Shown here: one piece after another, positions 15,217 through 53,850 of the stretch
Layout: the number at the start of each line of letters is the position of its first letter
How positions within the stretch are numbered: position 1 is the stretch's first letter
Origin: Opisthocomus hoazin
Taxonomy: Eukaryota > Chordata > Aves > Opisthocomiformes > Opisthocomidae
Assembly: GCF_030867145.1 (NCBI RefSeq)
Contig: NC_134440.1
Span: 3,348,001-3,412,000, forward strand
DNA: 64,000 nt
Direction of reading: 5' to 3'
The notes under the pieces: model-generated
What the model was told of the DNA's origin: nothing
Database searches by the model: none
What the model saw: only the letters and a program-made list of their open reading frames with translations
Position numbers and translations under genes: made by a program

Positions 15217-15226
15217 GCAAATTAGG
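15217..15226 (+). repeat. HOR landmark GCAAATTAGG, copy 1 of 8
   Basis: Here the nearly invariant GCAGATGAGG of the monomer core is changed to GCAAATTAGG. The same change occurs at 22,282, 28,581, 34,880, 40,988, 44,044, 47,099 and 50,536, and I find it nowhere else in the array. It therefore marks one monomer per HOR unit and defines unit lengths exactly. Confidence 0.9.
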
Positions 15227-18200
15227 CTGAGCAACAGCTTTCCAGGCTAGCTCTTTCTGGCTGCGAGCTATCTACAGACGTTCGCATTTTGGGAGCAGGG
15301 CTGCAGGAGGTTCCCGGCACGGACCCCCAGGGATACATTTGAAGTTTGAGGTGGCAAGAGAAGCAAGCAGCCCCAGTCTCTGTGCCTCTGTGCGAGCAGT
15401 GCCATGGGCAGATGAGGCTGAGCAACAGCTTTCCAGGCTAGCTCTTTCTGGCTGCGAGCTATCTGCAGACGTTCGCATTTTGGGAGCAGGGCTGCCGGAG
15501 ACGCCCGGCACGGACACCCAGAGATACATTTGAAGTTTGAGGTGGCAAGACAAGCAAGCAGCCCCAGTCTCTGTGCCTCTGTGCGAGCAGTGCCATGGGC
15601 AGATGAGGCTGAGCAACAGCTTTCCAGGCTAGCTCTTTCTGGCTGCGAGCTATCTGCAGATGTTCGCATTTTGGGAGCAGGGCTGCCGGAGGCGCCCGGC
15701 ACGGACCCCCAAAGCTACGTTTGACGTTTGAGGTGGCAAGACAAGCAAGCAGCCCTAGTCTCTGTGCCTCTGTGTGAGCAGTGCCATGGGCAGATGAGGC
15801 TGAGCAACAGCTTTCCAGGCTAGCTCTTTCTGGCTGCGAGCTATCTGCAGACGTTTGCAATTTAGGAGCAGGGCTGCCGGGGGCGCCCAGTACAAATCCC
15901 GAAAGCTACGTTTGAAGTTTGAGGTGGCAAGACAAGCAAGCAGCCCCAGTCTCTGTGCCTCTGTGCGAGCAGTGCCATGGGCAGATGAGGCTGAGCAACA
16001 GCTTTCCAGGCTAGCTCTTTCTGGCTGTGAGCTATCTGCAGATGTTCCCATTTTGGGAGCAGGGCTGCCGGAGGCGCCCGGCACGGACCCCCAGAGATGC
16101 GTTTGAAGTGTGACGTGGCAAGACAAGCAACTAGCCCCAGTCTCTGTGCCTCTGTGCGAGCAGTGCCATGGGCAGATGAGGCTGAGCAACAGCTTTCCAG
16201 GCTAGCTCTTTCTGGCTGCGAGCTATCTGCAGACGTTCGCATTTTGGGAGCAGGGCTGCCGGAAACGTCCGGCACGGATCCCCAAATTTACATTTGAAGT
16301 TTGAGGTGGCAAGACAAGCAAGCAGCCCCAGTCTCTGTGCCTCTGTGCGAGCAGTGCCATGGGCAGATGAGGCTGAGCAACAGCTTTCCAGGCTAGCTCT
16401 TTCTGGCTGTGAGCTATCTGCAGATGTTCCCATTTTGGGAGCAGGGCTGCCGGAGGCGCCCGGCACGGACCCCCAGAGATGCGTTTGAAGTGTGACGTGG
16501 CAAGACAAGCAACTAGCCCCAGTCTCTGTGCCTCTGTGCGAGCAGTGCCATGGGCAGATGAGGCTGAGCAACAGCTTTCCAGGCTAGCTCTTTCTGGCTG
16601 TGAGCTATCTGCAGATGTTCCCATTTTGGGAGCAGGGCTGCCGGAGGCGCCCGGCACGGACCCCCAGAGATGCGTTTGAAGTGTGACGTGGCAAGACAAG
16701 CAACTAGCCCCAGTCTCTGTGCCTCTGTGCGAGCAGTGCCATGGGCAGATGAGGCTGAGCAACAGCTTTCCAGGCTAGCTCTTTCTGGCTGCGAGCTATC
16801 TGCAGACGTTCGCATTTTGGGAGCAGGGCTGCCGGAAACGTCCGGCACGGATCCCCAAATTTACATTTGAAGTTTGAGGTGGCAAGACAAGCAAGCAGCC
16901 CCAGTCTCTGTGCCTCTGTGCGAGCAGTGCCATGGGCAGATGAGGCTGAGCAACAGCTTTCCAGGCTAGCTCTTTCTGGCTGTGAGCTATCTGCAGATGT
17001 TCCCATTTTGGGAGCAGGGCTGCCGGAGGCGCCCGGCACGGACCCCCAGAGATGCGTTTGAAGTGTGACGTGGCAAGACAAGCAACTAGCCCCAGTCTCT
17101 GTGCCTCTGTGCGAGCAGTGCCATGGGCAGATGAGGCTGAGCAACAGCTTTCCAGGCTAGCTCTTTCTGGCTGCGAGCTATCTGCAGACGTTCGCATTTT
17201 GGGAGCAGGGCTGCCGGAAACGTCCGGCACGGATCCCCAAATTTACATTTGAAGTTTGAGGTGGCAAGACAAGCAAGCAGCCCCAGTCTCTGTGCCTCTG
17301 TGCGAGCAGTGCCATGGGCAGATGAGGCTGAGCAACAGCTTTCCAGGCTAGCTCTTTCTGGCTGCGAGCTATCTGCAGACGTTCACATTTTGGGAGCAGG
17401 GCTGTCGGAGGTTCCCGGCACGGACCCCCAGGGATACATTTGAAGTTTGAGGTGGCAAGAGAAGCAACTAGCCCCAGTCTCTGTGCCTCTGTGCGAGCAG
17501 TGCCATGGGCAGATGAGGCTGAGCAACAGCTTTCCAGGCTAGCTCTTTCTGGCTGCGAGCTATCTGCAGACGTTCGCATTTTGGGAGCAGGGCTGCCGGA
17601 GGCGCCAGGCACGGACACCCAGAGATACTTTTGAAGTTTGAGGTGGGAAAACAAGCAAGCAGCTCCAGTCTCTGTGCCTCTGTGCGAGCAGTGCCATGGG
17701 CAGATGAGGCTGAGCAACAGCTTTCCAGGCTAGCTCTTTCTGGCTGCGAGCTATCTGCAGACGTTCGCATTTTGGGAGCAGGGCTGCCGGAAACGTCCGG
17801 CACGGATCCCCAAATTTACATTTGAAGTTTGAGGTGGCAAGACAAGCAAGCAGCCCCAGTCTCTGTGCCTCTGTGCGAGCAGTGCCATGGGCAGATGAGG
17901 CTGAGCAACAGCTTTCCAGGCTAGCTCTTTCTGGCTGCGAGCTATCTGCAGACGTTCACATTTTGGGAGCAGGGCTGTCGGAGGTTCCCGGCACGGACCC
18001 CCAGGGATACATTTGAAGTTTGAGGTGGCAAGAGAAGCAACTAGCCCCAGTCTCTGTGCCTCTGTGCGAGCAGTGCCATGGGCAGATGAGGCTGAGCAAC
18101 AGCTTTCCAGGCTAGCTCTTTCTGGCTGCGAGCTATCTGCAGACGTTCGCATTTTGGGAGCAGGGCTGCCGGAGGCGCCAGGCACGGACACCCAGAGATA

Positions 18201-21200
18201 CTTTTGAAGTTTGAGGTGGGAAAACAAGCAAGCAGCTCCAGTCTCTGTGCCTCTGTGCGAGCAGTGCCATGGGCAGATGAGGCTGAGCAACAGCTTTCCA
18301 GGCTAGCTCTTTCTGGCTGCGAGCTATCTGCAGACGTTCACATTTTGGGAGCAGGGCTGTCGGAGGTTCCCGGCACGGACCCCCAGGGATACATTTGAAG
18401 TTTGAGGTGGCAAGAGAAGCAACTAGCCCCAGTCTCTGTGCCTCTGTGCGAGCAGTGCCATGGGCAGATGAGGCTGAGCAACAGCTTTCCAGGCTAGCTC
18501 TTTCTGGCTGCGAGCTATCTGCAGACGTTCGCATTTTGGGAGCAGGGCTGCCGGAGGCGCCAGGCACGGACACCCAGAGATACTTTTGAAGTTTGAGGTG
18601 GGAAAACAAGCAAGCAGCTCCAGTCTCTGTGCCTCTGTGCGAGCAGTGCCATGGGCAGATGAGGCTGAGCAACAGCTTTCCAGGCTAGCTCTTTCTGGCT
18701 CCGAGCTATCTGCAGACATTCGCATTTTGGGAGCAGGGCTGCCGGAGACGCCCGGCACGGACCCCCAGAGATACATTTGAAGTTTGAGGCGGCAAGACAA
18801 GGAAGCAGCCCTAGTCTCTGTGCCTCTGTGCGAGCAGTGCCATGGGCAGATGAGGCTGAGCAACAGCTTTCCAGGCTAGCTCTTTCTGGCTCCGAGCTAT
18901 CTGCAGACATTCGCATTTTGGGAGCAGGGCTGCCGGAAACGTCCGGCACGGATCCCCAAATTTACATTTGAAGTTTGAGGTGGCAAGACAAGCAACCAGC
19001 CCCAGTCTCTGTGCCTCTGTGCGAGCAGTGCCATGGGCAGATGAGGCTGAGCAACAGCTTTCCAGGCTAGCTCTTTCTGGCTGCGAGCTATCTGCAGACG
19101 TTCGCATTTTGGGAGCAGGGCTGCCGGAAACGTCCGGCACGGATCCCCAAATTTACATTTGAAGTTTGAGGTGGCAAGACAAGCAACCAGCCCCAGTCTC
19201 TGTGCCTCTGTGCGAGCAGTGCCATGGGCAGATGAGGCTGAGCAACAGCTTTCCAGGCTAGCTCTTTCTGGCTGCGAGCTATCTGCAGACGTTCGCATTT
19301 TGGGAGCAGGGCTGCCGGAAACGTCCGGCACGGATCCCCAAATTTACATTTGAAGTTTGAGGTGGCAAGACAAGCAAGCAGCCCCAGTCTCTGTGCCTCT
19401 GTGCGAGCAGTGCCATGGGCAGATGAGGCTGAGCAACAGCTTTCCAGGCTAGCTCTTTCTGGCTGTGAGCTATCTGCAGATGTTCCCATTTTGGGAGCAG
19501 GGCTGCCGGAGGCGCCCGGCACGGACCCCCAGAGATGCGTTTGAAGTGTGACGTGGCAAGACAAGCAACTAGCCCCAGTCTCTGTGCCTCTGTGCGAGCA
19601 GTGCCATGGGCAGATGAGGCTGAGCAACAGCTTTCCAGGCTAGCTCTTTCTGGCTGCGAGCTATCTGCAGACGTTCGCATTTTGGGAGCAGGGCTGCCGG
19701 AAACGTCCGGCACGGATCCCCAAATTTACATTTGAAGTTTGAGGTGGCAAGACAAGCAAGCAGCCCCAGTCTCTGTGCCTCTGTGCGAGCAGTGCCATGG
19801 GCAGATGAGGCTGAGCAACAGCTTTCCAGGCTAGCTCTTTCTGGCTGCGAGCTATCTGCAGACGTTCACATTTTGGGAGCAGGGCTGTCGGAGGTTCCCG
19901 GCACGGACCCCCAGGGATACATTTGAAGTTTGAGGTGGCAAGAGAAGCAACTAGCCCCAGTCTCTGTGCCTCTGTGCGAGCAGTGCCATGGGCAGATGAG
20001 GCTGAGCAACAGCTTTCCAGGCTAGCTCTTTCTGGCTGCGAGCTATCTGCAGACGTTCGCATTTTGGGAGCAGGGCTGCCGGAGGCGCCAGGCACGGACA
20101 CCCAGAGATACTTTTGAAGTTTGAGGTGGGAAAACAAGCAAGCAGCTCCAGTCTCTGTGCCTCTGTGCGAGCAGTGCCATGGGCAGATGAGGCTGAGCAA
20201 CAGCTTTCCAGGCTAGCTCTTTCTGGCTCCGAGCTATCTGCAGACGTTCCCATTTTGGGAGCAGGGCTGCCGGAGACGCCCGGCACGGATCACCAGATAC
20301 ATTTGAAGTTTTAAGTGGCAAGAGAAGCAACCAGCCCCAGTCTCTGTGCCTCTGTGCGAGCAGTGCCATGTGCAGATGAGGCTGAGCAACAGCTTTCCAG
20401 GCTAGCTCTTTCTGGCTGCGAGCTATCTGCAGACGTTCGCATTTTGGGAGCAGGGCTGCCGGAGGTGCCTGGCACGGACCACCAGAGCTACGTTTGACGT
20501 TTGAGGTGGCAAGACAAGCAAGCAGCCCCAGTCTCTGTGCCTCTGTGCGAGCAGCGCCATGGGCAGATGAGGCTGAGCAACAGCTTTCCAGGCTAGCTCT
20601 TTCTGGCTGCAAGCTATCTGCAGATGTTCGCATTTTGGGAGCAGGGCTGCCGGGGGCGCCCAGTACAAATCCCCAAAGCTACGTCTGAAGTTTGAGGTGG
20701 CAAGACAAGCAAGCAGCCCTAGTCTCTGTGCCTCTGTGCGAGCAGTGCCATGGGCAGATGAGGCTGAGCAACAGCTTTCCAGGCTAGCTCTTTCTGGCTG
20801 CGAGCTATCTGCAGACGTTCCCATTTTGGGAGCAGGGCTGCCGGATGCGCCAGGCACGGACCCCCAAAGCTACATTTGAAGTCTGAGGTGGCAAGACAAG
20901 CAACCAGCCCCAGTCTCTGTGCCTCTGTGCGAGCAGTGCCATGGGCAGATGAGGCTGAGCAACAGCTTTCCAGGCTAGCTCTTTCTGGCTGCGAGCTATC
21001 TGCAGACGTTCGCAATTTAGGAGCAGGGCTGCCGGGGGCGCCCAGTACAAATCCCGAAAGCTACGTTTGAAGTTTGAGGTGGTAAGACAAGCAAGCAGCC
21101 CCAGTCTCTGTGCCTCTGTGCGAGCAGTGCCATGGGCAGATGAGGCTGAGCAACAGCTTTCCAGGCTAGCTCTTTCTGGCTGCGAGCTATCTGCAGACAT

Positions 21201-22281
21201 TCGCATTTTGGGAGCAGGGCTGCCGGAAACGTCCGGCACGGATCCCCAAATTTACATTTGAAGTTTGAGGTGGCAAGACAAGCAACCAGCCCCAGTCTCT
21301 GTGCCTCTGTGCGAGCAGTGCCATGGGCAGATGAGGCTGAGCAACAGCTTTCCAGGCTAGCTCTTTCTGGCTGCGAGCTATCTGCAGACGTTCGCATTTT
21401 GGGAGCAGGGCTGCCGGAAACGTCCGGCACGGATCCCCAAATTTACATTTGAAGTTTGAGGTGGCAAGACAAGCAACCAGCCCCAGTCTCTGTGCCTCTG
21501 TGCGAGCAGTGCCATGGGCAGATGAGGCTGAGCAACAGCTTTCCAGGCTAGCTCTTTCTGGCTGCGAGCTATCTGCAGACGTTCGCATTTTGGGAGCAGG
21601 GCTGCCGGAAACGTCCGGCACGGATCCCCAAATTTACATTTGAAGTTTGAGGTGGCAAGACAAGCAAGCAGCCCCAGTCTCTGTGCCTCTGTGCGAGCAG
21701 TGCCATGGGCAGATGAGGCTGAGCAACAGCTTTCCAGGCTAGCTCTTTCTGGCTGCGAGCTATCTGCAGACGTTCACATTTTGGGAGCAGGGCTGTCGGA
21801 GGTTCCCGGCACGGACCCCCAGGGATACATTTGAAGTTTGAGGTGGCAAGAGAAGCAACTAGCCCCAGTCTCTGTGCCTCTGTGCGAGCAGTGCCATGGG
21901 CAGATGAGGCTGAGCAACAGCTTTCCAGGCTAGCTCTTTCTGGCTGCGAGCTATCTGCAGACGTTCGCATTTTGGGAGCAGGGCTGCCGGAGGCGCCAGG
22001 CACGGACACCCAGAGATACTTTTGAAGTTTGAGGTGGGAAAACAAGCAAGCAGCTCCAGTCTCTGTGCCTCTGTGCGAGCAGTGCCATGGGCAGATGAGG
22101 CTGAGCAACAGCTTTCCAGGCTAGCTCTTTCTGGCTCCGAGCTATCTGCAGACGTTCCCATTTTGGGAGCAGGGCTGCCGGAGACGCCCGGCACGGACAC
22201 CCAGAGATACATTTGAAGTTTGAGGTGGCAAGACAAGCAAGCAGCCCCAGTCTCTGTGCCTCTGTGCGAGCAGTGCCATGG
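15217..22281. repeat. HOR unit 1 (37 monomers, 7,065 bp), internally expanded
   Basis: The unit is bounded by successive landmark sites (GCAAATTAGG at 15,217-15,226 and 22,282-22,291). Its first 1.2 kb matches the start of unit 2 at an offset of 7,065 bp. The middle (about 16,100-19,350) is filled with short-range duplications. A two- or three-monomer block with the GATGTTCCC and GAAACGTCCGG variants repeats at 16,294 and 16,867. Another three-monomer block repeats at 17,249 and 17,822. A two-monomer block repeats at 18,204 and 18,586. Single-monomer copies stand at 18,968 and 19,159, and at 21,258 and 21,449. About 19,535-22,190 is the counterpart of 24,690-27,345 in unit 2, offset 5,155 bp. 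Confidence 0.8.
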
Positions 22282-25200
22282 GCAAATTAGGCTGAGCAAC
22301 AGCTTTCCAGGCTAGCTCTTTCTGGCTGCGAGCTATCTACAGACGTTCGCATTTTGGGAGCAGGGCTGCAGGAGGTTCCCGGCACGGACCCCCAGGGATA
22401 CATTTGAAGTTTGAGGTGGCAAGAGAAGCAAGCAGCCCCAGTCTCTGTGCCTCTGTGCGAGCAGTGCCATGGGCAGATGAGGCTGAGCAACAGCTTTCCA
22501 GGCTAGCTCTTTCTGGCTGCGAGCTATCTGCAGACCTTCGCATTTTGGGAGCAGGGCTGCCGGAGACGCCCGGCACGGACACCCAGAGATACATTTGAAG
22601 TTTGAGGTGGCAAGACAAGCAAGCAGCCCCAGTCTCTGTGCCTCTGTGCGAGCAGTGCCATGGGCAGATGAGGCTGAGCAACAGCTTTCCAGGCTAGCTC
22701 TTTCTGGCTGCGAGCTATCTGCAGATGTTCGCATTTTGGGAGCAGGGCTGCCGGAGGCGCCCGGCACGGACCCCCAAAGCTACGTTTGACGTTTGAGGTG
22801 GCAAGACAAGCAAGCAGCCCTAGTCTCTGTGCCTCTGTGTGAGCAGTGCCATGGGCAGATGAGGCTGAGCAACAGCTTTCCAGGCTAGCTCTTTCTGGCT
22901 GCGAGCTATCTGCAGACGTTTGCAATTTAGGAGCAGGGCTGCCGGGGGCGCCCAGTACAAATCCCGAAAGCTACGTTTGAAGTTTGAGGTGGCAAGACAA
23001 GCAAGCAGCCCCAGTCTCTGTGCCTCTGTGCGAGCAGTGCCATGGGCAGATGAGGCTGAGCAACAGCTTTCCAGGCTAGCTCTTTCTGGCTGTGAGCTAT
23101 CTGCAGACGTTCCCATTTTGGGAGCAGGGCTGCCGGAGGCGCCCGGCACGGACCCCCAGAGATACGTTTGAAGTGTGACGTGGCAAGACAAGCAACTAGC
23201 CCCAGTCTCTGTGCCTCTGTGCGAGCAGTGCCATGGGCAGATGAGGCTGAGCAACAGCTTTCCAGGCTAGCTCTTTCTGGCTGCGAGCTATCTGCAGACG
23301 TTCGCATTTTGGGAGCAGGGCTGCCGGAAACTTCCGGCACGGATCCCCAAATTTACATTTGAAGTTTGAGGTGGCAAGACAAGCAAGCAGCCCCAGTCTC
23401 TGTGCCTCTGTGCGAGCAGTGCCATGGGCAGATGAGGCTGAGCAACAGCTTTCCAGGCTAGCTCTTTCTGGCTGCGAGCTATCTGCAGACGTTCACATTT
23501 TGGGAGCAGGGCTGTCGGAGGTTCCCGGCACGGACCCCCAGGGATACATTTGAAGTTTGAGGTGGCAAGAGAAGCAACTAGCCCCAGTCTCTGTGCCTCT
23601 GTGCGAGCAGTGCCATGGGCAGATGAGGCTGAGCAACAGCTTTCCAGGCTAGCTCTTTCTGGCTGCGAGCTATCTGCAGACGTTCGCATTTTGGGAGCAG
23701 GGCTGCCGGAGGCGCCAGGCACGGACACCCAGAGATACATTTGATGTTTGAGGTGGGAAAACAAGCAAGCAGCTCCAGTCTCTGTGCCTCTGTGCGAGCA
23801 GTGCCATGGGCAGATGAGGCTGAGCAACAGCTTTCCAGGCTAGCTCTTTCTGGCTGCGAGCTATCTACAGACGTTCGCATTTTGGGAGCAGGGCTGCAGG
23901 AGGTTCCCGGCACGGACCCCCAGGGATACATTTGAAGTTTGAGGTGGCAAGAGAAGCAAGCAGCCCCAGTCTCTGTGCCTCTGTGCGAGCAGTGCCATGG
24001 GCAGATGAGGCTGAGCAACAGCTTTCCAGGCTAGCTCTTTCTGGCTGCGAGCTATCGGCAGACGTTCGCATTTTGGGAGCAGGGCTGCCGGAGACGCCCG
24101 GCACGGACACCCAGAGATACATTTGAAGTTTGAGGTGGCAAGACAAGCAAGCAGCCCCAGTCTCTGTGCCTCTGTGCGAGCAGTGCCATGGGCAGATGAG
24201 GCTGAGCAACAGCTTTCCAGGCTAGCTCTTTCTGGCTGCGAGCTATCTGCAGATGTTCGCATTTTGGGAGCAGGGCTGCCGGAGGCGCCCGGCACGGACC
24301 CCCAAAGCTACGTTTGACGTTTGAGGTGGCAAGACAAGCAAGCAGCCCTAGTCTCTGTGCCTCTGTGTGAGCAGTGCCATGGGCAGATGAGGCTGAGCAA
24401 CAGCTTTCCAGGCTAGCTCTTTCTGGCTGCGAGCTATCTGCAGACGTTTGCAATTTAGGAGCAGGGCTGCCGGGGGCGCCCAGTACAAATCCCGAAAGCT
24501 ACGTTTGAAGTTTGAGGTGGCAAGACAAGCAAGCAGCCCCAGTCTCTGTGCCTCTGTGCGAGCAGTGCCATGGGCAGATGAGGCTGAGCAACAGCTTTCC
24601 AGGCTAGCTCTTTCTGGCTGTGAGCTATCTGCAGATGTTCCCATTTTGGGAGCAGGGCTGCCGGAGGCGCCCGGCACGGACCCCCAGAGATGCGTTTGAA
24701 GTGTGACGTGGCAAGACAAGCAACTAGCCCCAGTCTCTGTGCCTCTGTGCGAGCAGTGCCATGGGCAGATGAGGCTGAGCAACAGCTTTCCAGGCTAGCT
24801 CTTTCTGGCTGCGAGCTATCTGCAGACGTTCGCATTTTGGGAGCAGGGCTGCCGGAAACGTCCGGCACGGATCCCCAAATTTACATTTGAAGTTTGAGGT
24901 GGCAAGACAAGCAAGCAGCCCCAGTCTCTGTGCCTCTGTGCGAGCAGTGCCATGGGCAGATGAGGCTGAGCAACAGCTTTCCAGGCTAGCTCTTTCTGGC
25001 TGCGAGCTATCTGCAGACGTTCACATTTTGGGAGCAGGGCTGTCGGAGGTTCCCGGCACGGACCCCCAGGGATACATTTGAAGTTTGAGGTGGCAAGAGA
25101 AGCAACTAGCCCCAGTCTCTGTGCCTCTGTGCGAGCAGTGCCATGGGCAGATGAGGCTGAGCAACAGCTTTCCAGGCTAGCTCTTTCTGGCTGCGAGCTA

Positions 25201-28200: not shown

Positions 28201-28580
28201 AGATGAGGCTGAGCAACAGCTTTCCAGGCTAGCTCTTTCTGGCTGTGAGCTATCTGCAGACGTTCGCATTTTGGGAGTAGGGCTGCCGGAGGCGCCCGGC
28301 ACGGACCCCCAGAGATACGTTTGAAGTGTGAGGTGGCAAGACAAGCAAGCAGCCCCAGTCTCTGTGCCTCTGTGCGAGCAGTGCCATGGGCAGATGAGGC
28401 TGAGCAACAGCTTTCCAGGCTAGCTCTTTCTGGCTGCGAGCTATCTGCAGACATTCGCATTTTGGGAGCAGGGCTGCAGGAGACGCCCGGCACGGACACC
28501 CAGAGATACATTTGAAGTTTGAGGTGGCAAGACAAGCAAGCAGCCCCAGTCTCTGTGCCTCTGTGCGAGCAGTGCCATGG
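22282..28580. repeat. HOR unit 2 (33 monomers, 6,299 bp)
   Basis: This unit runs from landmark 22,282 to landmark 28,581. The length is 33 x 191 minus 4, and the missing 4 bp are explained by two monomers with a 2-bp deletion (GATCACCAGATAC in place of GATCACCAAAGATAC, near 25,444 and 27,352). It contains a direct 10-monomer duplication (1,908 bp) in which about 25,078-26,240 recurs at about 26,986-28,150. Most of the unit appears near identical by eye to unit 3, apart from a central segment of about 1.1-1.2 kb near 25,750-26,900. Confidence 0.85.
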
Positions 28581-40800: not shown

Positions 40801-40987
40801 ATGAGGCTGAGCAACAGCTTTCCAGGCTAGCTCTTTCTGGCTGCGAGCTATCTGCAGACATTCGCATTTTGGGAGCAGGGCTGCAGGAGACGCCCGGCAC
40901 GGACACCCAGAGATACATTTGAAGTTTGAGGTGGCAAGACAAGCAAGCAGCCCCAGTCTCTGTGCCTCTGTGCGAGCAGTGCCATGG
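34880..40987. repeat. HOR unit 4 (32 monomers, 6,108 bp)
   Basis: This unit runs from landmark 34,880 to landmark 40,988. The length is 32 x 191 minus 4, again explained by two 2-bp-deleted monomers (near 38,042 and 39,759). It is one monomer shorter than units 2 and 3 because the internal duplication here is 9 monomers (1,717 bp). About 37,046-38,070 recurs at about 38,763-39,787, with an extra three-way junction near 38,381. The monomer around 38,300 combines GTGTGAGCAG with CAGCGCCATG, variants otherwise found in different monomers, so it looks like a recombinant. Confidence 0.85.
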
Positions 40988-43900
40988 GCAAATTAGGCTG
41001 AGCAACAGCTTTCCAGGCTAGCTCTTTCTGGCTGCGAGCTATCTACAGACGTTCGCATTTTGGGAGCAGGGCTGCAGGAGGTTCCCGGCACGGACCCCCA
41101 GGGATACATTTGAAGTTTGAGGTGGCAAGAGAAGCAAGCAGCCCCAGTCTCTGTGCCTCTGTGCGAGCAGTGCCATGGGCAGATGAGGCTGAGCAACAGC
41201 TTTCCAGGCTAGCTCTTTCTGGCTGCGAGCTATCTGCAGACCTTCGCATTTTGGGAGCAGGGCTGCCGGAGACGCCCGGCACGGACACCCAGAGATACAT
41301 TTGAAGTTTGAGGTGGCAAGACAAGCAAGCAGCCCCAGTCTCTGTGCCTCTGTGCGAGCAGTGCCATGGGCAGATGAGGCTGAGCAACAGCTTTCCAGGC
41401 TAGCTCTTTCTGGCTGCGAGCTATCTGCAGATGTTCGCATTTTGGGAGCAGGGCTGCCGGAGGCGCCCGGCACGGACCCCCAAAGCTACGTTTGACGTTT
41501 GAGGTGGCAAGACAAGCAAGCAGCCCTAGTCTCTGTGCCTCTGTGTGAGCAGTGCCATGGGCAGATGAGGCTGAGCAACAGCTTTCCAGGCTAGCTCTTT
41601 CTGGCTGCGAGCTATCTGCAGACGTTTGCAATTTAGGAGCAGGGCTGCCGGGGGCGCCCAGTACAAATCCCGAAAGCTACGTTTGAAGTTTGAGGTGGCA
41701 AGACAAGCAAGCAGCCCCAGTCTCTGTGCCTCTGTGCGAGCAGTGCCATGGGCAGATGAGGCTGAGCAACAGCTTTCCAGGCTAGCTCTTTCTGGCTGTG
41801 AGCTATCTGCAGACGTTCCCATTTTGGGAGCAGGGCTGCCGGAGGCGCCCGGCACGGACCCCCAGAGATACGTTTGAAGTGTGACGTGGCAAGACAAGCA
41901 ACTAGCCCCAGTCTCTGTGCCTCTGTGCGAGCAGTGCCATGGGCAGATGAGGCTGAGCAACAGCTTTCCAGGCTAGCTCTTTCTGGCTGCGAGCTATCTG
42001 CAGACGTTCGCATTTTGGGAGCAGGGCTGCCGGAAACTTCCGGCACGGATCCCCAAATTTACATTTGAAGTTTGAGGTGGCAAGACAAGCAAGCAGCCCC
42101 AGTCTCTGTGCCTCTGTGCGAGCAGTGCCATGGGCAGATGAGGCTGAGCAACAGCTTTCCAGGCTAGCTCTTTCTGGCTGCGAGCTATCTGCAGACGTTC
42201 ACATTTTGGGAGCAGGGCTGTCGGAGGTTCCCGGCACGGACCCCCAGGGATACATTTGAAGTTTGAGGTGGCAAGAGAAGCAACTAGCCCCAGTCTCTGT
42301 GCCTCTGTGCGAGCAGTGCCATGGGCAGATGAGGCTGAGCAACAGCTTTCCAGGCTAGCTCTTTCTGGCTGCGAGCTATCTGCAGACGTTCGCATTTTGG
42401 GAGCAGGGCTGCCGGAGGCGCCAGGCACGGACACCCAGAGATACATTTGATGTTTGAGGTGGGAAAACAAGCAAGCAGCTCCAGTCTCTGTGCCTCTGTG
42501 CGAGCAGTGCCATGGGCAGATGAGGCTGAGCAACAGCTTTCCAGGCTAGCTCTTTCTGGCTGTGAGCTATGTGCAGACGTTCGCATTTTGGGAGCAGGGC
42601 TGCCGGAGACGCCCGGCACGGATCACCAAAGATACATTTGAAGTTTTAAGTGGCAAGAGAAGCAACCAGCCCCAGTCTCTGTGCCTCTGTGCGAGCAGTG
42701 CCATGGGCAGATGAGGCTGAGCAACAGCTTTCCAGGCTAGCTCTTTCTGGCTGCGAGCTATCTGCAGACGTTCGCATTTTGGGAGCAGGGCTGCCGGAGG
42801 CGCCTGGCACGGACCACCAGAGATACATTTGAAGTTTGAGGTGGCAAGACAAGCAAGCAGCCCCAGTCTCTGTGCCTCTGTGCGAGCAGTGCCATGGGCA
42901 GATGAGGCTGAGCAACAGCTTTCCAGGCTAGCTCTTTCTGGCTGCGAGCTATCTGCAGATGTTCGCATTTTGGGAGCAGGGCTGCCGGATGCGCCCGGCA
43001 CGGACCCCCAAAGCTACGTTTGAAGTGTGAGGTGGCAAGACAAGCAAGCAGCCCTAGTCTCTGTGCCTCTGTGCGAGCAGTGCCATGGGCAGATGAGGCT
43101 GAGCAACAGCTTTCCAGGCTAGCTCTTTCTGGCTGCGAGCTATATGCAGACGGTCGCATTTTGGGAGCAGGGCTGCCGGAGGCGCCCGGCACGGACCCCC
43201 AAAAGTACGTTTGAAGTTTGAGGTGGCAAGACAAGCAAGCAGCCCCAGTCTCTGTGCCTCTGTGCGAGCAGTGCCATGGGCAGATGAGGCTGAGCAACAG
43301 CTTTCCAGGCTAGCTCTTTCTGGCTGCGAGCTATCTGCAGACGTTCGCATTTTGGGAGCAGGGCTGCCGGAGGCGCCCGACATGGACCCCCAAAAGTACG
43401 TTGGAAGTTTGAGGTGGCAAGACAAGCAAGCAGCCCCAGTCTCTGTGCCTCTGTGCGAGCAGTGCCATGGGCAGATGAGGCTGAGCAACAGCTTTCCAGG
43501 CTAGCTCTTTCTGGCTGCGAGCTATCTGCAGATGTTCGCATTTTGGGAGCAGGGCTGCCGGGGGCGCCCAGTACAAATCCCCAAAGCTACGTCTGAAGTT
43601 TGAGGTGGCAAGACAAGCAAGCAGCCACAGTCTCTGTGCCTCTGTGCGAGCAGTGCCATGGGCAGATGAGGCTGAGCAACAGCTTTCCAGGCTAGCTCTT
43701 TCTGGCTGTGAGCTATCTGCAGACGTTCCCATTTTGGGACTAGGGCTGCCGGAGGCGCCCGGCACGGACCCCCAGAGATACGTTTGAAGTGTGAGGTGGC
43801 AAGACAAGCAAGCAGCCCCAGTCTCTGTGCCTCTGTGCGAGCAGTGCCATGGGCAGATGAGGCTGAGCAACAGCTTTCCAGGCTAGCTCTTTCTGGCTGC

Positions 43901-44043
43901 GAGCTATCTGCAGACATTCGCATTTTGGGAGCAGGGCTGCAGGAGACGCCCGGCACGGACACCCAGATATACATTTGAAGTTTGAGGTGGCAAGACAAGC
44001 AAGCAGCCCCAGTCTCTGTGCCTCTGTGCGAGCAGTGCCATGG
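40988..44043. repeat. HOR unit 5 (16 monomers, 3,056 bp)
   Basis: This unit runs from landmark 40,988 to landmark 44,044 and is exactly 16 x 191 bp. The first 1.57 kb follows unit 4 at an offset of 6,108 bp. At about 42,555 it departs into monomers with a GAGCTATGTGCAGACG variant, then GATCACCAAAGATAC without the 2-bp deletion, then a CATATATGCAGACGG-like monomer group not found in units 1-4. This unit is the switch from about 32-monomer to 16-monomer periodicity. Confidence 0.8.
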
Positions 44044-47000
44044 GCAAATTAGGCTGAGCAACAGCTTTCCAGGCTAGCTCTTTCTGGCTGCGAGCTATCT
44101 ACAGACGTTCGCATTTTGGGAGCAGGGCTGCAGGAGGTTCCCGGCACGGACCCCCAGGGATACATTTGAAGTTTGAGGTGGCAAGAGAAGCAAGCAGCCC
44201 CAGTCTCTGTGCCTCTGTGCGAGCAGTGCCATGGGCAGATGAGGCTGAGCAACAGCTTTCCAGGCTAGCTCTTTCTGGCTGCGAGCTATCTGCAGACGTT
44301 CGCATTTTGGGAGCAGGGCTGCCGGAGACGCCCGGCACGGACACCCAGAGATACATTTGAAGTTTGAGGTGGCAAGACAAGCAAGCAGCCCCAGTCTCTG
44401 TGCCTCTGTGCGAGCAGTGCCATGGGCAGATGAGGCTGAGCAACAGCTTTCCAGGCTAGCTCTTTCTGGCTGCGAGCTATCTGCAGATGTTCGCATTTTG
44501 GGAGCAGGGCTGCCGGAGGCGCCCGGCACGGACCCCCAAAGCTACGTTTGACGTTTGAGGTGGCAAGACAAGCAAGCAGCCCTAGTCTCTGTGCCTCTGT
44601 GTGAGCAGTGCCATGGGCAGATGAGGCTGAGCAACAGCTTTCCAGGCTAGCTCTTTCTGGCTGCGAGCTATCTGCAGACGTTTGCAATTTAGGAGCAGGG
44701 CTGCCGGGGGCGCCCAGTACAAATCCCGAAAGCTACGTTTGAAGTTTGAGGTGGCAAGACAAGCAAGCAGCCCCAGTCTCTGTGCCTCTGTGCGAGCAGT
44801 GCCATGGGCAGATGAGGCTGAGCAACAGCTTTCCAGGCTAGCTCTTTCTGGCTGTGAGCTATCTGCAGACGTTCCCATTTTGGGAGCAGGGCTGCAGGAG
44901 GCGCCCGGCACGGACCCCCAGAGATACGTTTGAAGTGTGACGTGGCAAGACAAGCAACTAGCCCCAGTCTCTGTGCCTCTGTGCGAGCAGTGCCATGGGC
45001 AGATGAGGCTGAGCAACAGCTTTCCAGGCTAGCTCTTTCTGGCTGCGAGCTATCTGCAGACGTTCGCATTTTGGGAGCAGGGCTGCCGGAAACGTCCGGC
45101 ACGGATCCCCAAATTTACATTTGAAGTTTGAGGTGGCAAGACAAGCAAGCAGCCCCAGTCTCTGTGCCTCTGTGCGAGCAGTGCCATGGGCAGATGAGGC
45201 TGAGCAACAGCTTTCCAGGCTAGCTCTTTCTGGCTGCGAGCTATCTGCAGACGTTCACATTTTGGGAGCAGGGCTGTCGGAGGTTCCCGGCACGGACCCC
45301 CAGGGATACATTTGAAGTTTGAGGTGGCAAGAGAAGCAACTAGCCCCAGTCTCTGTGCCTCTGTGCGAGCAGTGCCATGGGCAGATGAGGCTGAGCAACA
45401 GCTTTCCAGGCTAGCTCTTTCTGGCTGCGAGCTATCTGCAGACGTTCGCATTTTGGGAGCAGGGCTGCCGGAGGCGCCAGGCACGGACACCCAGAGATAC
45501 ATTTGAAGTTTGAGGTGGGAAAACAAGCAAGCAGCTCCAGTCTCTGTGCCTCTGTGCGAGCAGTGCCATGGGCAGATGAGGCTGAGCAACAGCTTTCCAG
45601 GCTAGCTCTTTCTGGCTGAGAGCTATGTGCAGACGTTCGCATTTTGGGAGCAGGGCTGCCGGAGACGCCCGGCACGGATCACCAAAGATACATTTGAAGT
45701 TTTAAGTGGCAAGAGAAGCAACCAGCCCCAGTCTCTGTGCCTCTGTGCGAGCAGTGCCATGGGCAGATGAGGCTGAGCAACAGCTTTCCAGGCTAGCTCT
45801 TTCTGGCTGCGAGCTATCTGCAGACGTTCGCATTTTGGGAGCAGGGCTGCCGGAGGCGCCTGGCACGGACCACCAGAGATACATTTGAAGTTTGAGGTGG
45901 CAAGACAAGCAAGCAGCCCCAGTCTCTGTGCCTCTGTGCGAGCAGTGCCATGGGCAGATGAGGCTGAGCAACAGCTTTCCAGGCTAGCTCTTTCTGGCTG
46001 CGAGCTATCTGCAGATGTTCGCATTTTGGGAGCAGGGCTGCCGGATGCGCCAGGCACGGACCCCCAAAGCTACATTTGAAGTTTGAGGTGGCAAGACAAG
46101 CAACCAGCCCCAGTCTCTGTGCCTCTGTGCGAGCAGTGCCATGGGCAGATGAGGCTGAGCAACAGCTTTCCAGGCTAGCTCTTTCTGGCTGCGAGCTATC
46201 TGCAGACGTTCGCAATTTAGGAGCAGGGCTGCCAGGGGCGCCCAGTACAAATCCCGAAAGCTACGTTTGAAGTTTGAGGTGGCAAGACAAGCAAGCAGCC
46301 CCATCTCTGTGCCTCTGTGCGAGCAGTGCCATGGGCAGATGAGGCTGAGCAACAGCTTTCCAGGCTAGCTCTTTCTGGCTGCGAGCTATCTGCAGACGTT
46401 CGCATTTTGGGAGCAGGGCTGCCGGAGACGCCCGGCACGGACCCCCAGAGATACATTTGAAGTTTCAGGTGGCAAGACAAGCAAGCAGCCCCAGTCTCTG
46501 TGCCTCTGTGCGAGCAGTGCCATGGGCAGATGAGGCTGAGCAACAGCTTTCCAGGCTAGCTCTTTCTGGCTGCGAGCTATATGCAGACGGTCGCATTTTG
46601 GGAGCAGGGCTGCCGGAGGCGCCCGGCACGGACCCCCAAAAGTACGTTTGAAGTTTGAGGTGGCAAGACAAGCAAGCAGCCACAGTCTCTGTGCCTCTGT
46701 GCGAGCAGTGCCATGGGCAGATGAGGCTGAGCAACAGCTTTCCAGGCTAGCTCTTTCTGGCTGTGAGCTATCTGCAGACGTTCCCATTTTGGGAGTAGGG
46801 CTGCCGGAGGCGCCCGGCACGGACCCCCAGAGATACGTTTGAAGTGTGAGGTGGCAAGACAAGCAAGCAGCCCCAGTCTCTGTGCCTCTGTGCGAGCAGT
46901 GCCATGGGCAGATGAGGCTGAGCAACAGCTTTCCAGGCTAGCTCTTTCTGGCTGCGAGCTATCTGCAGACATTCGCATTTTGGGAGCAGGGCTGCAGGAG

Positions 47001-47098
47001 ACGCCCGGCACGGACACCCAGAGATACATTTGAAGTTTGAGGTGGCAAGACAAGCAAGCAGCCCCAGTCTCTGTGCCTCTGTGCGAGCAGTGCCATGG
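44044..47098. repeat. HOR unit 6 (16 monomers, 3,055 bp)
   Basis: This unit runs from landmark 44,044 to landmark 47,099. It is 16 x 191 minus 1 bp. The missing base is in a monomer reading CCCCATCTCTG instead of CCCCAGTCTCTG, near 46,300. It matches unit 5 over most of its length, with differences in the region corresponding to 43,020-43,780. Confidence 0.8.
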
Positions 47099-50000
47099 GC
47101 AAATTAGGCTGAGCAACAGCTTTCCAGGCTAGCTCTTTCTGGCTGCGAGCTATCTACAGACGTTCGCATTTTGGGAGCAGGGCTGCAGGAGGTTCCCGGC
47201 ACGGACCCCCAGGGATACATTTGAAGTTTGAGGTGGCAAGAGAAGCAAGCAGCCCCAGTCTCTGTGCCTCTGTGCGAGCAGTGCCATGGGCAGATGAGGC
47301 TGAGCAACAGCTTTCCAGGCTAGCTCTTTCTGGCTGCGAGCTATCTGCAGACGTTCGCATTTTGGGAGCAGGGCTGCCGGAGACGCCCGGCACGGACACC
47401 CAGAGATACATTTGAAGTTTGAGGTGGCAAGACAAGCAAGCAGCCCCAGTCTCTGTGCCTCTGTGCGAGCAGTGCCATGGGCAGATGAGGCTGAGCAACA
47501 GCTTTCCAGGCTAGCTCTTTCTGGCTGCGAGCTATCTGCAGATGTTCGCATTTTGGGAGCAGGGCTGCCGGACGCGCCCGGCACGGACCCCCAAAGCTAC
47601 GTTTGACGTTTGAGGTGGCAAGACAAGCAAGCAGCCCTAGTCTCTGTGCCTCTGTGTGAGCAGTGCCATGGGCAGATGAGGCTGAGCAACAGCTTTCCAG
47701 GCTAGCTCTTTCTGGCTGCGAGCTATCTGCAGACGTTTGCAATTTAGGAGCAGGGCTGCCGGGGGCGCCCAGTACAAATCCCGAAAGCTACGTTTGAAGT
47801 TTGAGGTGGCAAGACAAGCAAGCAGTCCCAGTCTCTGTGCCTCTGTGCGAGCAGTGCCATGGGCAGATGAGGCTGAGCAACAGCTTTCCAGGCTAGCTCT
47901 TTCTGGCTGTGAGCTATCTGCAGACGTTCCCATTTTGGGAGCAGGGCTGCCGGAGGCGCCCGGCACGGACCCCCAGAGATACGTTTGAAGTGTGACGTGG
48001 CAAGACAAGCAACTAGCCCCAGTCTCTGTGCCTCTGTGCGAGCAGTGCCATGGGCAGATGAGGCTGAGCAACAGCTTTCCAGGCTAGCTCTTTCTGGCTG
48101 CGAGCTATCTGCAGACGTTCGCATTTTGGGAGCAGGGCTGCCGGAAACGTCCGGCACGGATCCCCAAATTTACATTTGAAGTTTGAGGTGGCAAGACAAG
48201 CAAGCAGCCCCAGTCTCTGTGCCTCAGTGCGAGCAGTGCCATGGGCAGATGAGGCTGAGCAACAGCTTTCCAGGCTAGCTCTTTCTGGCTGCGAGCTATC
48301 TGCAGACGTTCACATTTTGGGAGCAGGGCTGTCGGAGGTTCCCGGCACGGACCCCCAGGGATACATTTGAAGTTTGAGGTGGCAAGAGAAGCAACTAGCC
48401 CCAGTCTCTGTGCCTCTGTGCGAGCAGTGCCATGGGCAGATGAGGCTGAGCAACAGCTTTCCAGGCTAGCTCTTTCTGGCTGCGAGCTATCTGCAGACGT
48501 TCGCATTTTGGGAGCAGGGCTGCCGGAGGCGCCAGGCACGGACACCCAGAGATACATTTGAAGTTTGAGGTGGGAAAACAAGCAAGCAGCTCCAGTCTCT
48601 GTGCCTCTGTGCGAGCAGTGCCATGGGCAGATGAGGCTGAGCAACAGCTTTCCAGGCTAGCTCTTTCTGGCTGTGAGCTATGTGCAGACGTTCGCATTTT
48701 GGGAGCAGGGCTGCCGGAGACGCCCGGCACGGATCACCAAAGATACATTTGAAGTTTTAAGTGGCAAGAGAAGCAACCAGCCCCAGTCTCTGTGCCTCTG
48801 TGCGAGCAGTGCCATGGGCAGATGAGGCTGAGCAACAGCTTTCCAGGCTAGCTCTTTCTGGCTGCGAGCTATCTGCAGACGTTCGCATTTTGGGAGCAGG
48901 GCTGCCGGAGGCGCCTGGCACGGACCACCAGAGATACTTTTGAAGTTTGAGGTGGCAAGACAAGACACTAGCCCCAGTCTCTGTGCCTCTGTGCGAGCAG
49001 TGCCATGGGCAGATGAGGCTGAGCAACAGCTTTCCAGGCTAGCTCTTTCTGGCTGCGAGCTATCTGCAGATGTTCGCATTTTGGGAGCAGGGCTGCCGGA
49101 TGCGCCCGGCACGGACCCCCAAAGCTACGTTTGAAGTTTGAGGTGGCAAGACAAGCAAGCAGCCCTAGTCTCTGTGCCTCTGTGCGAGCAGTGCCATGGG
49201 CAGATGAGGCTGAGCAACAGCTTTCCAGGCTAGCTCTTTCTGGCTGCGAGCTATCTGCAGACGTTTGCAATTTAGGAGCAGGGCTGCCAGGGGCGCCCAG
49301 TACAAATCCCGAAAGCTACGTTTGAAGTTTGAGGTGGCAAGACAAGCAAGCAGCCCCATCTCTGTGCCTCTGTGCGAGCAGTGCCATGGGCAGATGAGGC
49401 TGAGCAACAGCTTTCCAGGCTAGCTCTTTCTGGCTGCGAGCTATCTGCAGATGTTCGCATTTTGGGAGCAGGGCTGCCGGAGACGCCCGGCACGGACCCC
49501 CAGAGATACATTTGAAGTTTCAGGTGGCAAGACAAGCAAGCAGCCCCAGTCTCTGTGCCTCTGTGCGAGCAGTGCCATGGGCAGATGAGGCTGAGCAACA
49601 GCTTTCCAGGCTAGCTCTTTCTGGCTGCGAGCTATATGCAGACGGTCGCATTTTGGGAGCAGGGCTGCCGGAGGCGCCCGGCACGGACCCCCAAAAGTAC
49701 GTTTGAAGTTTGAGGTGGCAAGACAAGCAAGCAGCCCTAGTCTCTGTGCCTCTGTGCGAGCAGTGCCATGGGCAGATGAGGCTGAGCAACAGCTTTCCAG
49801 GCTAGCTCTTTCTGGCTGCGAGCTATCTGCAGACGTTCGCATTTTGGGAGCAGGGCTGCCGGAGGCGCCCGACATGGACCCCCAAAAGTACGTTGGAAGT
49901 TTGAGGTGGCAAGACAAGCAAGCAGCCCCAGTCTCTGTGCCTCTGTGCGAGCAGTGCCATGGGCAGATGAGGCTGAGCAACAGCTTTCCAGGCTAGCTCT

Positions 50001-50535
50001 TTCTGGCTGCGAGCTATCTGCAGATGTTCGCATTTTGGGAGCAGGGCTGCCGGGGGCGCCCAGTACAAATCCCCAAAGCTACGTCTGAAGTTTGAGGTGG
50101 CAAGACAAGCAAGCAGCCACAGTCTCTGTGCCTCTGTGCGAGCAGTGCCATGGGCAGATGAGGCTGACCAACAGCTTTCCAGGCTAGCTCTTTCTGGCTG
50201 CGAGCTATCTGCAGACGTTCGCATTTTGGGAGCAGGGCTGCCGGATGCGCCCGGCACGGACCCCCAAAGCTACGTTTGAAGTTTGAGGTGGCAAGACAAG
50301 CAACCAGCCCCAGTCTCTGTGCCTCTGTGCGAGCAGTGCCATGGGCAGATGAGGCTGAGCAACAGCTTTCCAGGCTAGCTCTTTCTGGCTGCGAGCTATC
50401 TGCAGACATTCGCATTTTGGGAGCAGGGCTGCAGGAGACGCCCGGCACGGACACCCAGAGATACATTTGAAGTTTGAGGTGGCAAGACAAGCAAGCAGCC
50501 CCAGTCTCTGTGCCTCTGTGCGAGCAGTGCCATGG
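47099..50535. repeat. HOR unit 7 (18 monomers, 3,437 bp)
   Basis: This unit runs from landmark 47,099 to landmark 50,536. It is 18 x 191 minus 1 bp, with the same 1-bp-deleted CCCCATCTCTG monomer (near 49,355). Relative to unit 6 it has gained two monomers in its second half, where a CGACATGGACC monomer and a GCCCAGTACAAATCCCC monomer follow the AGACGG monomer. A GACACTAGCCCC variant near 48,961 is shared with unit 8 only. Confidence 0.8.
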
Positions 50536-53500
50536 GCAAATTAGGCTGAGCAACAGCTTTCCAGGCTAGCTCTTTCTGGCTGCGAGCTATCTACAGACGT
50601 TCGCATTTTGGGAGCAGGGCTGCAGGAGGTTCCCGGCACGGACCCCCAGGGATACATTTGAAGTTTGAGGTGGCAAGACAAGCAAGCAGCCCCAGTCTCT
50701 GTGCCTCTGTGCGAGCAGTGCCATGGGCAGATGAGGCTGAGCAACAGCTTTCCAGGCTAGCTCTTTCTGGCTGCGAGCTATCTGCAGACGTTCGCATTTT
50801 GGGAGCAGGGCTGCCGGAGACGCCCGGCACGGACACCCAGAGATACATTTGAAGTTTGAGGTGGCAAGACAAGCAAGCAGCCCCAGTCTCTGTGCCTCTG
50901 TGCGAGCAGTGCCATGGGCAGATGAGGCTGAGCAACAGCTTTCCAGGCTAGCTCTTTCTGGCTGCGAGCTATCTGCAGATGTTCGCATTTTGGGAGCAGG
51001 GCTGCCGGACGCGCCCGGCACGGACCCCCAAAGCTACGTTTGACGTTTGAGGTGGCAAGACAAGCAAGCAGCCCTAGTCTCTGTGCCTCTGTGTGAGCAG
51101 TGCCATGGGCAGATGAGGCTGAGCAACAGCTTTCCAGGCTAGCTCTTTCTGGCTGCGAGCTATCTGCAGACGTTTGCAATTTAGGAGCAGGGCTGCCGGG
51201 GGCGCCCAGTACAAATCCCGAAAGCTACGTTTGAAGTTTGAGGTGGCAAGACAAGCAAGCAGTCCCAGTCTCTGTGCCTCTGTGCGAGCAGTGCCATGGG
51301 CAGATGAGGCTGAGCAACAGCTTTCCAGGCTAGCTCTTTCTGGCTGTGAGCTATCTGCAGACGTTCCCATTTTGGGAGCAGGGCTGCCGGAGGCGCCCGG
51401 CACGGACCCCCAGAGATACGTTTGAAGTGTGACGTGGCAAGACAAGCAACTAGCCCCAGTCTCTGTGCCTCTGTGCGAGCAGTGCCATGGGCAGATGAGG
51501 CTGAGCAACAGCTTTCCAGGCTAGCTCTTTCTGGCTGCGAGCTATCTGCAGACGTTCGCATTTTGGGAGCAGGGCTGCCGGAAACGTCCGGCACGGATCC
51601 CCAAATTTACATTTGAAGTTTGAGGTGGCAAGACAAGCAAGCAGCCCCAGTCTCTGTGCCTCTGTGCGAGCAGTGCCATGGGCAGATGAGGCTGAGCAAC
51701 AGCTTTCCAGGCTAGCTCTTTCTGGCTGCGAGCTATCTGCAGACGTTCACATTTTGGGAGCAGGGCTGTCGGAGGTTCCCGGCACGGACCCCCAGGGATA
51801 CATTTGAAGTTTGAGGTGGCAAGAGAAGCAACTAGCCCCAGTCTCTGTGCCTCTGTGCGAGCAGTGCCATGGGCAGATGAGGCTGAGCAACAGCTTTCCA
51901 GGCTAGCTCTTTCTGGCTGCGAGCTATCTGCAGACGTTCGCATTTTGGGAGCAGGGCTGCCGGAGGCGCCAGGCACGGACACCCAGAGATACATTTGAAG
52001 TTTGAGGTGGGAAAACAAGCAAGCAGCTCCAGTCTCTGTGCCTCTGTGCGAGCAGTGCCATGGGCAGATGAGGCTGAGCAACAGCTTTCCAGGCTAGCTC
52101 TTTCTGGCTGTGAGCTATGTGCAGACGTTCGCATTTTGGGAGAAGGGCTGCCGGAGACGCCCGGCACGGATCACCAAAGATACATTTGAAGTTTTAAGTG
52201 GCAAGAGAAGCAACCAGCCCCAGTCTCTGTGCCTCTGTGCGAGCAGTGCCATGGGCAGATGAGGCTGAGCAACAGCTTTCCAGGCTAGCTCTTTCTGGCT
52301 GCGAGCTATCTGCAGACGTTCGCATTTTGGGAGCAGGGCTGCCGGAGGCGCCTGGCACGGACCACCAGAGATACATTTGAAGTTTGAGGTGGCAAGACAA
52401 GACACTAGCCCCAGTCTCTGTGCCTCTGTGCGAGCAGTGCCATGGGCAGATGAGGCTGAGCAACAGCTTTCCAGGCTAGCTCTTTCTGGCTGCGAGCTAT
52501 CTGCAGATGTTCGCATTTTGGGAGCAGGGCTGCCGGATGCGCCCGGCACGGACCCCCAAAGCTACGTTTGAAGTTTGAGGTGGCAAGACAAGCAAGCAGC
52601 CCTAGTCTCTGTGCCTCTGTGCGAGCAGTGCCATGGGCAGATGAGGCTGAGCAACAGCTTTCCAGGCTAGCTCTTTCTGGCTGCGAGCTATCTGCAGACG
52701 TTTGCAATTTAGGAGCAGGGCTGCCAGGGGCGCCCAGTACAAATCCCGAAAGCTACGTTTGAAGTTTGAGGTGGCAAGACAAGCAAGCAGCCCCATCTCT
52801 GTGCCTCTGTGCGAGCAGTGCCATGGGCAGATGAGGCTGAGCAACAGCTTTCCAGGCTAGCTCTTTCTGGCTGCGAGCTATCTGCAGATGTTCGCATTTT
52901 GGGAGCAGGGCTGCCGGAGACGCCCGGCACGGACCCCCAGAGATACATTTGAAGTTTCAGGTGGCAAGACAAGCAAGCAGCCCCAGTCTCTGTGCCTCTG
53001 TGCGAGCAGTGCCATGGGCAGATGAGGCTGAGCAACAGCTTTCCAGGCTAGCTCTTTCTGGCTGCGAGCTATATGCAGACGGTCGCATTTTGGGAGCAGG
53101 GCTGCCGGAGGCGCCCGGCACGGACCCCCAAAAGTACGTTTGAAGTTTGAGGTGGCAAGACAAGCAAGCAGCCCCAGTCTCTGTGCCTCTGTGCGAGCAG
53201 TGCCATGGGCAGATGAGGCTGAGCAACAGCTTTCCAGGCTAGCTCTTTCTGGCTGCGAGCTATCTGCAGACGTTCGCATTTTGGGAGCAGGGCTGCCGGA
53301 GGCGCCCGACATGGACCCCCAAAAGTACGTTGGAAGTTTGAGGTGGCAAGACAAGCAAGCAGCCCCAGTCTCTGTGCCTCTGTGCGAGCAGTGCCATGGG
53401 CAGATGAGGCTGAGCAACAGCTTTCCAGGCTAGCTCTTTCTGGCTGCGAGCTATCTGCAGATGTTCGCATTTTGGGAGCAGGGCTGCCGGGGGCGCCCAG

Positions 53501-53850
53501 TACAAATCCCCAAAGCTACGTCTGAAGTTTGAGGTGGCAAGACAAGCAAGCAGCCACAGTCTCTGTGCCTCTGTGCGAGCAGTGCCATGGGCAGATGAGG
53601 CTGACCAACAGCTTTCCAGGCTAGCTCTTTCTGGCTGCGAGCTATCTGCAGACGTTCGCATTTTGGGAGCAGGGCTGCCGGATGCGCCCGGCACGGACCC
53701 CCAAAGCTACGTTTGAAGTTTGAGGTGGCAAGACAAGCAACCAGCCCCAGTCTCTGTGCCTCTGTGCGAGCAGTGCCATGGGCAGATGAGGCTGAGCAAC
53801 AGCTTTCCAGGCTAGCTCTTTCTGGCTGCGAGCTATCTGCAGACATTCGC
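50536..53850. repeat. HOR unit 8, last and incomplete
   Basis: This unit starts at landmark 50,536 and follows unit 7 at an offset of 3,437 bp, including the 1-bp-deleted monomer near 52,792, the GACACTAGCCCC variant near 52,398 and the GCTGACCAACAG variant near 53,602. The match is lost at about 53,845: where unit 7 continues with CATTCGCATTTTGGG, this copy reads CATTCGCAATTTAGG. No ninth landmark follows. Confidence 0.8.

What the first reader, a model, noticed from the sequence alone, without database searches (positions are those of the whole stretch)
15217..53850. Landmark-defined HOR series whose unit size steps down toward the array edge
A single diagnostic monomer (GCAAATTAGG in place of GCAGATGAGG) occurs eight times at exactly measurable distances: 7,065, 6,299, 6,299, 6,108, 3,056, 3,055 and 3,437 bp. 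These equal 37, 33, 33, 32, 16, 16 and 18 monomers. So the array has genuine higher-order repeats of 3-7 kb, and unit size halves between 40,988 and 44,044. HORs this long are well known from primate alpha satellite; in birds such structure has been little described, as far as I know. The ordered reduction suggests either deletion of half a unit, or growth of a 16-mer into a 33-mer by internal duplication, followed by separate amplification.
Basis: seen in the sequence. Interest (0 to 1): 0.8.

Follow-up and report, generated by a model that had tools for sequence, protein, structure and literature searches.

The report
Bird satellite with layered repeat units
A long stretch of bird-type repetitive DNA is built from 191-letter units grouped into larger repeating blocks, much like those known at human and chicken centromeres, so it is a real and tidy example of a known kind of structure rather than a new one.

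Summary
In detail: the landmark occurs 8 times at the stated positions, spaced 37, 33, 33, 32, 16, 16 and 18 monomers. Matching runs reach 27 monomers; 100 shuffles of monomer order never exceeded 5. True higher-order repeats (HORs) are present.

The "ordered step-down" is not one unit shrinking. Left of the first landmark lies a 33-monomer repeat without the landmark. 15,239-41,009 holds young, nested 32-37-mers (14 monomer types fill 33 positions in units 2 and 3). 41,010-53,803 holds a simple 18-mer; its two 16-mers fit as 18-mers that each lost two neighbouring monomers. Thirteen unique monomers form the edge. The switch lies inside one hybrid unit, near 42,538-42,562. Other monomers show no ordered decline.

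Best mechanism (inferred): in-phase unequal exchange between monomers plus layered expansion; one fused monomer is visible. HORs in a bird are already published for chicken CNM repeats (PMC9974502). Extra: 41 of 191 columns hold 60% of monomer divergence.

Species, chromosome, centromere activity and assembly accuracy could not be tested; the own-genome search did not complete.

The parts
1..56378 (+). 191-bp satellite array, head to tail, cut by the window's left end
   Evidence: TRF; 294 whole monomers
154..15238 (+). Layer A: 79 monomers; 17 of them (154-3400) recur at lag 33 monomers (6455-9701) with 4 differences in 3,247 columns; landmark only in the last monomer
15239..22303 (+). Unit 1, 37 monomers, irregular; ends in a fused d/X landmark monomer (22113-22303)
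22304..28602 (+). Unit 2, 33-mer: YZaVCQbc YZaVCQbc dSTeVQQQbc dSTeVWX
28603..34901 (+). Unit 3, 33-mer: first 18 and last 10 monomers identical to unit 2, five in between replaced
34902..41009 (+). Unit 4, 32-mer
41010..44065 (+). Unit 5, 16-mer and hybrid: head identical to the first heads of units 2-4 (0 of 1,528), rest of the 18-mer type; exact match to the 33-mers ends at 42,562
44066..47120 (+). Unit 6, 16-mer of the 18-mer type, monomers j and k missing
47121..50557 (+). Unit 7, 18-mer, 18 of 18 monomers of different type
50558..53803 (+). Unit 8, 17 monomers, 5 differences in 3,246 bp to unit 7
53804..56378 (+). Edge: 13 monomers without a near twin, then a partial monomer
61695..63685 (-). 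Pieces of a host gene read as four exons (stretches tested: 61695-61880, 62165-62250, 62900-63015, 63598-63685); DEAD-box helicase-like, recalled as DDX49
   Evidence: weak PDB hits for one exon; no Pfam or PDB hit at 0.001 for the joined peptide

Best explanation
This is one edge of a (peri)centromeric-type 191-bp satellite array in a bird-like genome. It grew by unequal exchange between monomers aligned in phase, in layers. A simple HOR of about 18 monomers lies near the unique flank. A younger, nested 32-37-monomer HOR made of 8- and 10-monomer sub-blocks lies further in and shares the 8-monomer head and the closing W-X. Another 33-monomer HOR lies beyond it. The 16-mers are 18-mers that lost two neighbouring monomers; the apparent halving is a seam between two layers inside unit 5. 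Shown: the layers, the identities, the hybrid unit and a fused monomer. Inferred: the exchange process, the age order and the centromeric setting.
For: Ordered strings of monomer types and runs up to 27 against at most 5 in 100 shuffles. Unit 5's head is identical to the first heads of units 2-4 and differs by 4, 6 and 6 from units 6-8. Units 5 and 6 align to unit 7 with l,m and j,k missing. The landmark monomer of unit 1 fits d (left) plus X (right) with 0 mismatches against 4 for the best single type, breakpoint columns 67-85, and its neighbours fit (bc before d, X before Y). Monomers with an identical twin: A 42 of 79, B 129 of 135, C 51 of 67, edge 0 of 13.
Against: Gene conversion would leave much the same marks. 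Layer A, further from this edge than B, looks older than B, so age does not simply fall away from the edge. The fused-monomer fit chooses among many pairs of types and breakpoints, so it has more freedom than a single-type fit. The centromeric setting rests on likeness to other satellites. Nothing beyond the window and no reads were seen.
Confidence: 0.75

Rival explanations
1. One reading: one HOR lineage whose unit was cut in half toward the edge.
For: Both families share the head YZaVCQbc and the end WX, and some middle types are related.
Against: The middle monomers of the 16- and 18-mers are not among those of the 33-mers at the clustering used, the last spacing rises, and unit 5 is a hybrid.
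Confidence: 0.08
2. One reading: a 16-18-mer-like ancestor grew into the 33-mer by internal duplication, and each form then spread separately. This overlaps the best explanation and differs in the direct descent.
For: Repeated head and dSTeV blocks inside units 2-4; 14 types in 33 positions against 18 types in 18; related middle types.
Against: The first and second heads inside the 33-mers differ by 7 in 1,528 bp, no closer than to the 18-mer heads (4-7), so the duplication is not visibly younger than the split. Layer A types could be the source as well.
Confidence: 0.12
3. Assembly artefact: copies duplicated or misplaced by the assembler.
For: Exact repeats of 5,191 and 3,595 bp lie in layer B; no reads could be checked.
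Against: Units 2, 3 and 4 each carry their own structural change, and layers A and C carry scattered single-base differences between copies, which plain duplicated contig ends would not be expected to show.
Confidence: 0.05

Closest known systems
Chicken CNM (41-bp) centromeric HORs, PMC9974502 (passages seen)
   Same: Tandem satellite of a bird forming long HORs; units of 26-98 monomers; layered expansion discussed.
   Different: Monomer is 41 bp, not 191 bp; no sequence comparison was made here; CENP-A mapped there, not here.
Cascading alpha-satellite HORs of human chromosome 15, PMC11050224 (abstract and passages seen)
   Same: Monomer types repeated inside a canonical unit (15 monomers of 9 types there; 33 of 14 types here), with a simple HOR (18-mer there, 18-mer here) elsewhere in the array.
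   Different: Other satellite (171 bp) and hundreds of copies there; three nested units of 32-33 monomers here, and monomers differ by about 7% between neighbours.
Duck APL-HaeIII (190 bp) and goose AFA-HinfI-L (192 bp), PMC6435179 (passages and section 14 seen)
   Same: Length and bird centromeric setting.
   Different: Those were cut out as monomers with HaeIII or HinfI; this array has 0 HaeIII and 1 HinfI site. GC 51.6% there against about 57-58% here. Their letters were not compared.
Zebra finch 191-bp centromeric satellite (recalled as Tgut191A; no paper found)
   Same: Monomer length and bird origin, from recall only.
   Different: Sequence not available here; identity untested.

Membership tests
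Higher-order repeat (HOR) satellite array | Ordered sets of diverged monomers that recur as a block | tested here: met
   Runs up to 27 monomers, shuffles at most 5 of 100 trials
Higher-order repeat (HOR) satellite array | Copies of the block far more alike than monomers within it | tested here: met
   Units 2 and 3: 0 differences in the first 3,436 bp; units 7 and 8: 5 in 3,246; neighbouring monomers differ by 6.6-7.9% in layers A-C
Cascading HOR | Monomer types repeated inside the canonical unit | tested here: met
   14 types in 33, 33 and 32 positions in units 2-4; the canonical form rests on only three units, which differ from each other
Simple (Willard-type) HOR, units 5-8 | All monomers of a unit of different type | tested here: met
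   16 of 16 in unit 5, 18 of 18 in unit 7; units 6 and 8 read so, not counted by script
Active centromere | CENP-A enrichment and CpG methylation dip | not testable with these tools
   No chromatin data
Duck APL-HaeIII satellite | HaeIII site once per monomer | tested here: not met
   0 GGCC in 1-56,378
Goose AFA-HinfI-L satellite | HinfI site once per monomer | tested here: not met
   1 GANTC in 1-56,378
Zebra finch 191-bp satellite | Sequence identity to its consensus | not testable with these tools
   No bird genome or consensus at hand; own-genome search unanswered

The most novel reading that the evidence does not exclude
Each 191-bp monomer divides into a nucleosome-sized part of about 150 bp held nearly constant by selection on centromeric chromatin and a linker-sized part of about 41 bp free to drift, so that HOR identity is written mostly in the linker. 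New mutations then fall evenly while old ones survive mainly in the linker, which would make selection on centromeric satellite sequence directly testable in a bird.
Probability: 0.18. Interest if true: 0.6.

Novelty: new member of a known kind. Interest (0 to 1): 0.35.

Why it matters
It shows long HORs on a 191-bp satellite in what looks like a bird, besides the published 41-bp chicken ones: a nested 33-mer and a simple 18-mer lie side by side within about 31 kb, with the seam and a fused monomer in view. That is a compact test case for how HORs form outside primates. The split of the monomer into a constant and a variable part gives a further hypothesis about nucleosome-level constraint.

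Tried and rejected
Halving of one unit by deletion: not favoured, since the middle monomers are of other, though related, types. Duck and goose satellites: rejected on restriction sites. CpG decay as the only cause of the variable segment: rejected; non-CpG columns diverge 0.122 inside against 0.019 outside. Relaxed constraint at the edge: no support; outside the segment the 13 edge monomers diverge 0.0205, the HOR monomers 0.0199, the left block 0.0244. A stable single-strand fold: not seen for the one 191-bp stretch folded (z +1.47; 188 of 200 shuffles fold at least as well). Exact 32-base match in viral contigs and genome contigs: 0 each; a 2,201-base stretch against phages: no match; these collections hold no bird genomes, so this says little. 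Pfam: 0 of 10 flank ORFs at E 0.1 (10 of the 61 listed) and 0 of 2 typed proteins at 0.001.

New against old variants: 14 of 61 new and 48 of 103 old ones lie in the 41 bp (p 0.003; the 26 singleton monomers dropped). Over 12 settings p ran from 0.007 to 0.21, 7 of 12 below 0.05 (singletons kept). 45 of the 61 new variants also occur in other monomer types, so many may be conversion. The segment was chosen on the same data.

Papers that gave nothing: PMC2966331 (passages; its '191 bp' is a microsatellite allele), PMC8687609 (one passage). PMC5023761 (passages) maps a zebra finch chromosome 28 centromere marker near one end; not tied to this window.

Full report
Observation. The landmark GCAAATTAGG occurs 8 times at the stated positions, all on the + strand; 0.10 expected, 0 of 100 shuffles reach 8. 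The array is one 191-bp tandem repeat from 1 to 56,378. I cut it into 294 whole monomers (281 of 191 bp, 9 of 189, 4 of 190). The landmark lies in monomers 78, 115, 148, 181, 213, 229, 245 and 263, spaced 37, 33, 33, 32, 16, 16, 18.

HOR structure. Average-linkage clustering (cut at 2.5 differences) gave 66 clusters, 26 of them single monomers. Between landmarks the strings read: unit 1 YZaVCQCCQCQbcQbcbcPQQQCQbcdSTeVQQQbc and a fused landmark monomer; unit 2 YZaVCQbcYZaVCQbcdSTeVQQQbcdSTeVWX; unit 3 YZaVCQbcYZaVCQbcdSYZaVCQbcdSTeVWX; unit 4 YZaVCQbcYZaVCQbcdaVCVCQbcdSTeVWX; unit 5 YZaVCQbcfghijkWX; unit 6 YZaVCQbcfg.lmiWX; unit 7 YZaVCQbcfnhlmijkUX; unit 8 YZaVCQbcfnhlmijkU, then 13 unique monomers. 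The longest run of matching monomers (at most 2 differences each) is 27; in 100 shuffles of monomer order the longest was 5, seen once.

What the step-down is. Units 2-4 are nested: 14 types fill 33, 33 and 32 positions. Units 5 and 7 have no repeated type (16 of 16, 18 of 18). Unit 5 aligns to unit 7 with l,m missing, unit 6 with j,k missing, so the 16-mers fit as deletion forms of an 18-mer (inference). The head of unit 5 is identical to the first heads of units 2-4 (0 of 1,528), while the heads of units 6, 7 and 8 differ from it by 4, 6 and 6. The exact match to the 33-mers ends at 42,562. So unit 5 is a hybrid and the halving is a seam. Other monomers give other spacing series, such as Y: 37, 8, 25, 8, 10, 15, 8, 24, 16, 16, 18. 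Left of the first landmark 17 monomers recur at lag 33 with 4 differences in 3,247 columns, and the landmark is absent there. In layer A lag 33 is the best of the lags scanned, 37% of 46 pairs.

Relation of the layers. Middle types of the 18-mer resemble types elsewhere: f-R 3.2, k-T 2.8, l-V 2.8, h-U 3.1, g-S 5.1 mean differences. A shared ancestor is likely, and growth by internal duplication is part of the story. Direct descent of the 33-mer from this 18-mer is not shown: the first and second heads inside the 33-mers differ by 7 in 1,528 bp, as much as they differ from the 18-mer heads.

Age layers. Monomers with an identical twin: A 42 of 79, B 129 of 135, C 51 of 67, edge 0 of 13. Exact repeats reach 5,191 bp in B. 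B is the youngest or most recently homogenised layer; the edge is the most diverged. Layer A, further from this edge, also looks older than B, so there is no simple gradient.

Mechanism. The landmark monomer of unit 1 fits as d on the left and X on the right with 0 mismatches, against 4 for the best single type, with the breakpoint in columns 67-85. This equals a loss of about six monomers with the 191-bp phase kept. That is what unequal crossing-over between aligned monomers leaves; conversion can leave the same. The process is inferred.

Constant and variable parts. 41 of 191 columns (65-105 counted from TTTCCAGG) hold 60% of divergence from consensus over 121 distinct monomers; 2,000 shuffles of columns gave a mean of 33% and a maximum of 48% for the best 41. 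CpG alone does not explain it. Variants inside clusters are spread evenly (14 of 61 in the segment, 13 expected), older ones are not (48 of 103), but the contrast depends on settings (p 0.007 to 0.21). The diverged edge shows no relaxation outside the segment, which speaks against a simple loss-of-function picture. I treat constraint as a hypothesis; the likeness of 150 and 41 bp to nucleosome core and linker is recalled and untested.

Surroundings. The array ends at 56,378. Four minus-strand stretches between 61,695 and 63,685 translate as exons of what I recall as DDX49. The tools support this weakly: one exon finds 6 PDB chains at E 0.51-1.4, 5 of them DEAD-box proteins; the joined peptide has no PDB or Pfam hit at 0.001. 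A CR1-like 3' end near 62,520-62,757 is recalled from the sequence, with no repeat library to test it. Bird origin rests on these and on the satellite; species and chromosome stay open.

Known kinds. HORs in a bird are published for chicken CNM repeats (PMC9974502, passages), and cascading HORs for human chromosome 15 (PMC11050224, abstract and passages). The Mallard and Silkie assembly paper names a tool for higher-order structure; the passages that I saw gave no HOR result (PMC11745021). My ten paper searches showed no description of this array in their listings; most subscription papers are not held. I rate it a new member of a known kind.

Noticed in passing
all monomers, columns 65-105 counted from TTTCCAGG: 41 of 191 columns hold 60% of divergence from consensus; the remaining 150 or so are nearly constant.
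   Followed up: partly
46167, 49222, 52659, 55523: 190-bp monomers at spacings 3,055, 3,437 and 2,864 bp; the last lies in the diverged edge and may be a trace of an older unit there.
   Followed up: no
56378-61695: Only about 5.3 kb separate the array edge from the 3' end of what looks like a housekeeping helicase gene (recalled as DDX49).
   Followed up: partly
62520-62757: Looks like the 3' end of a CR1 retrotransposon (recalled, not tested).
   Followed up: no
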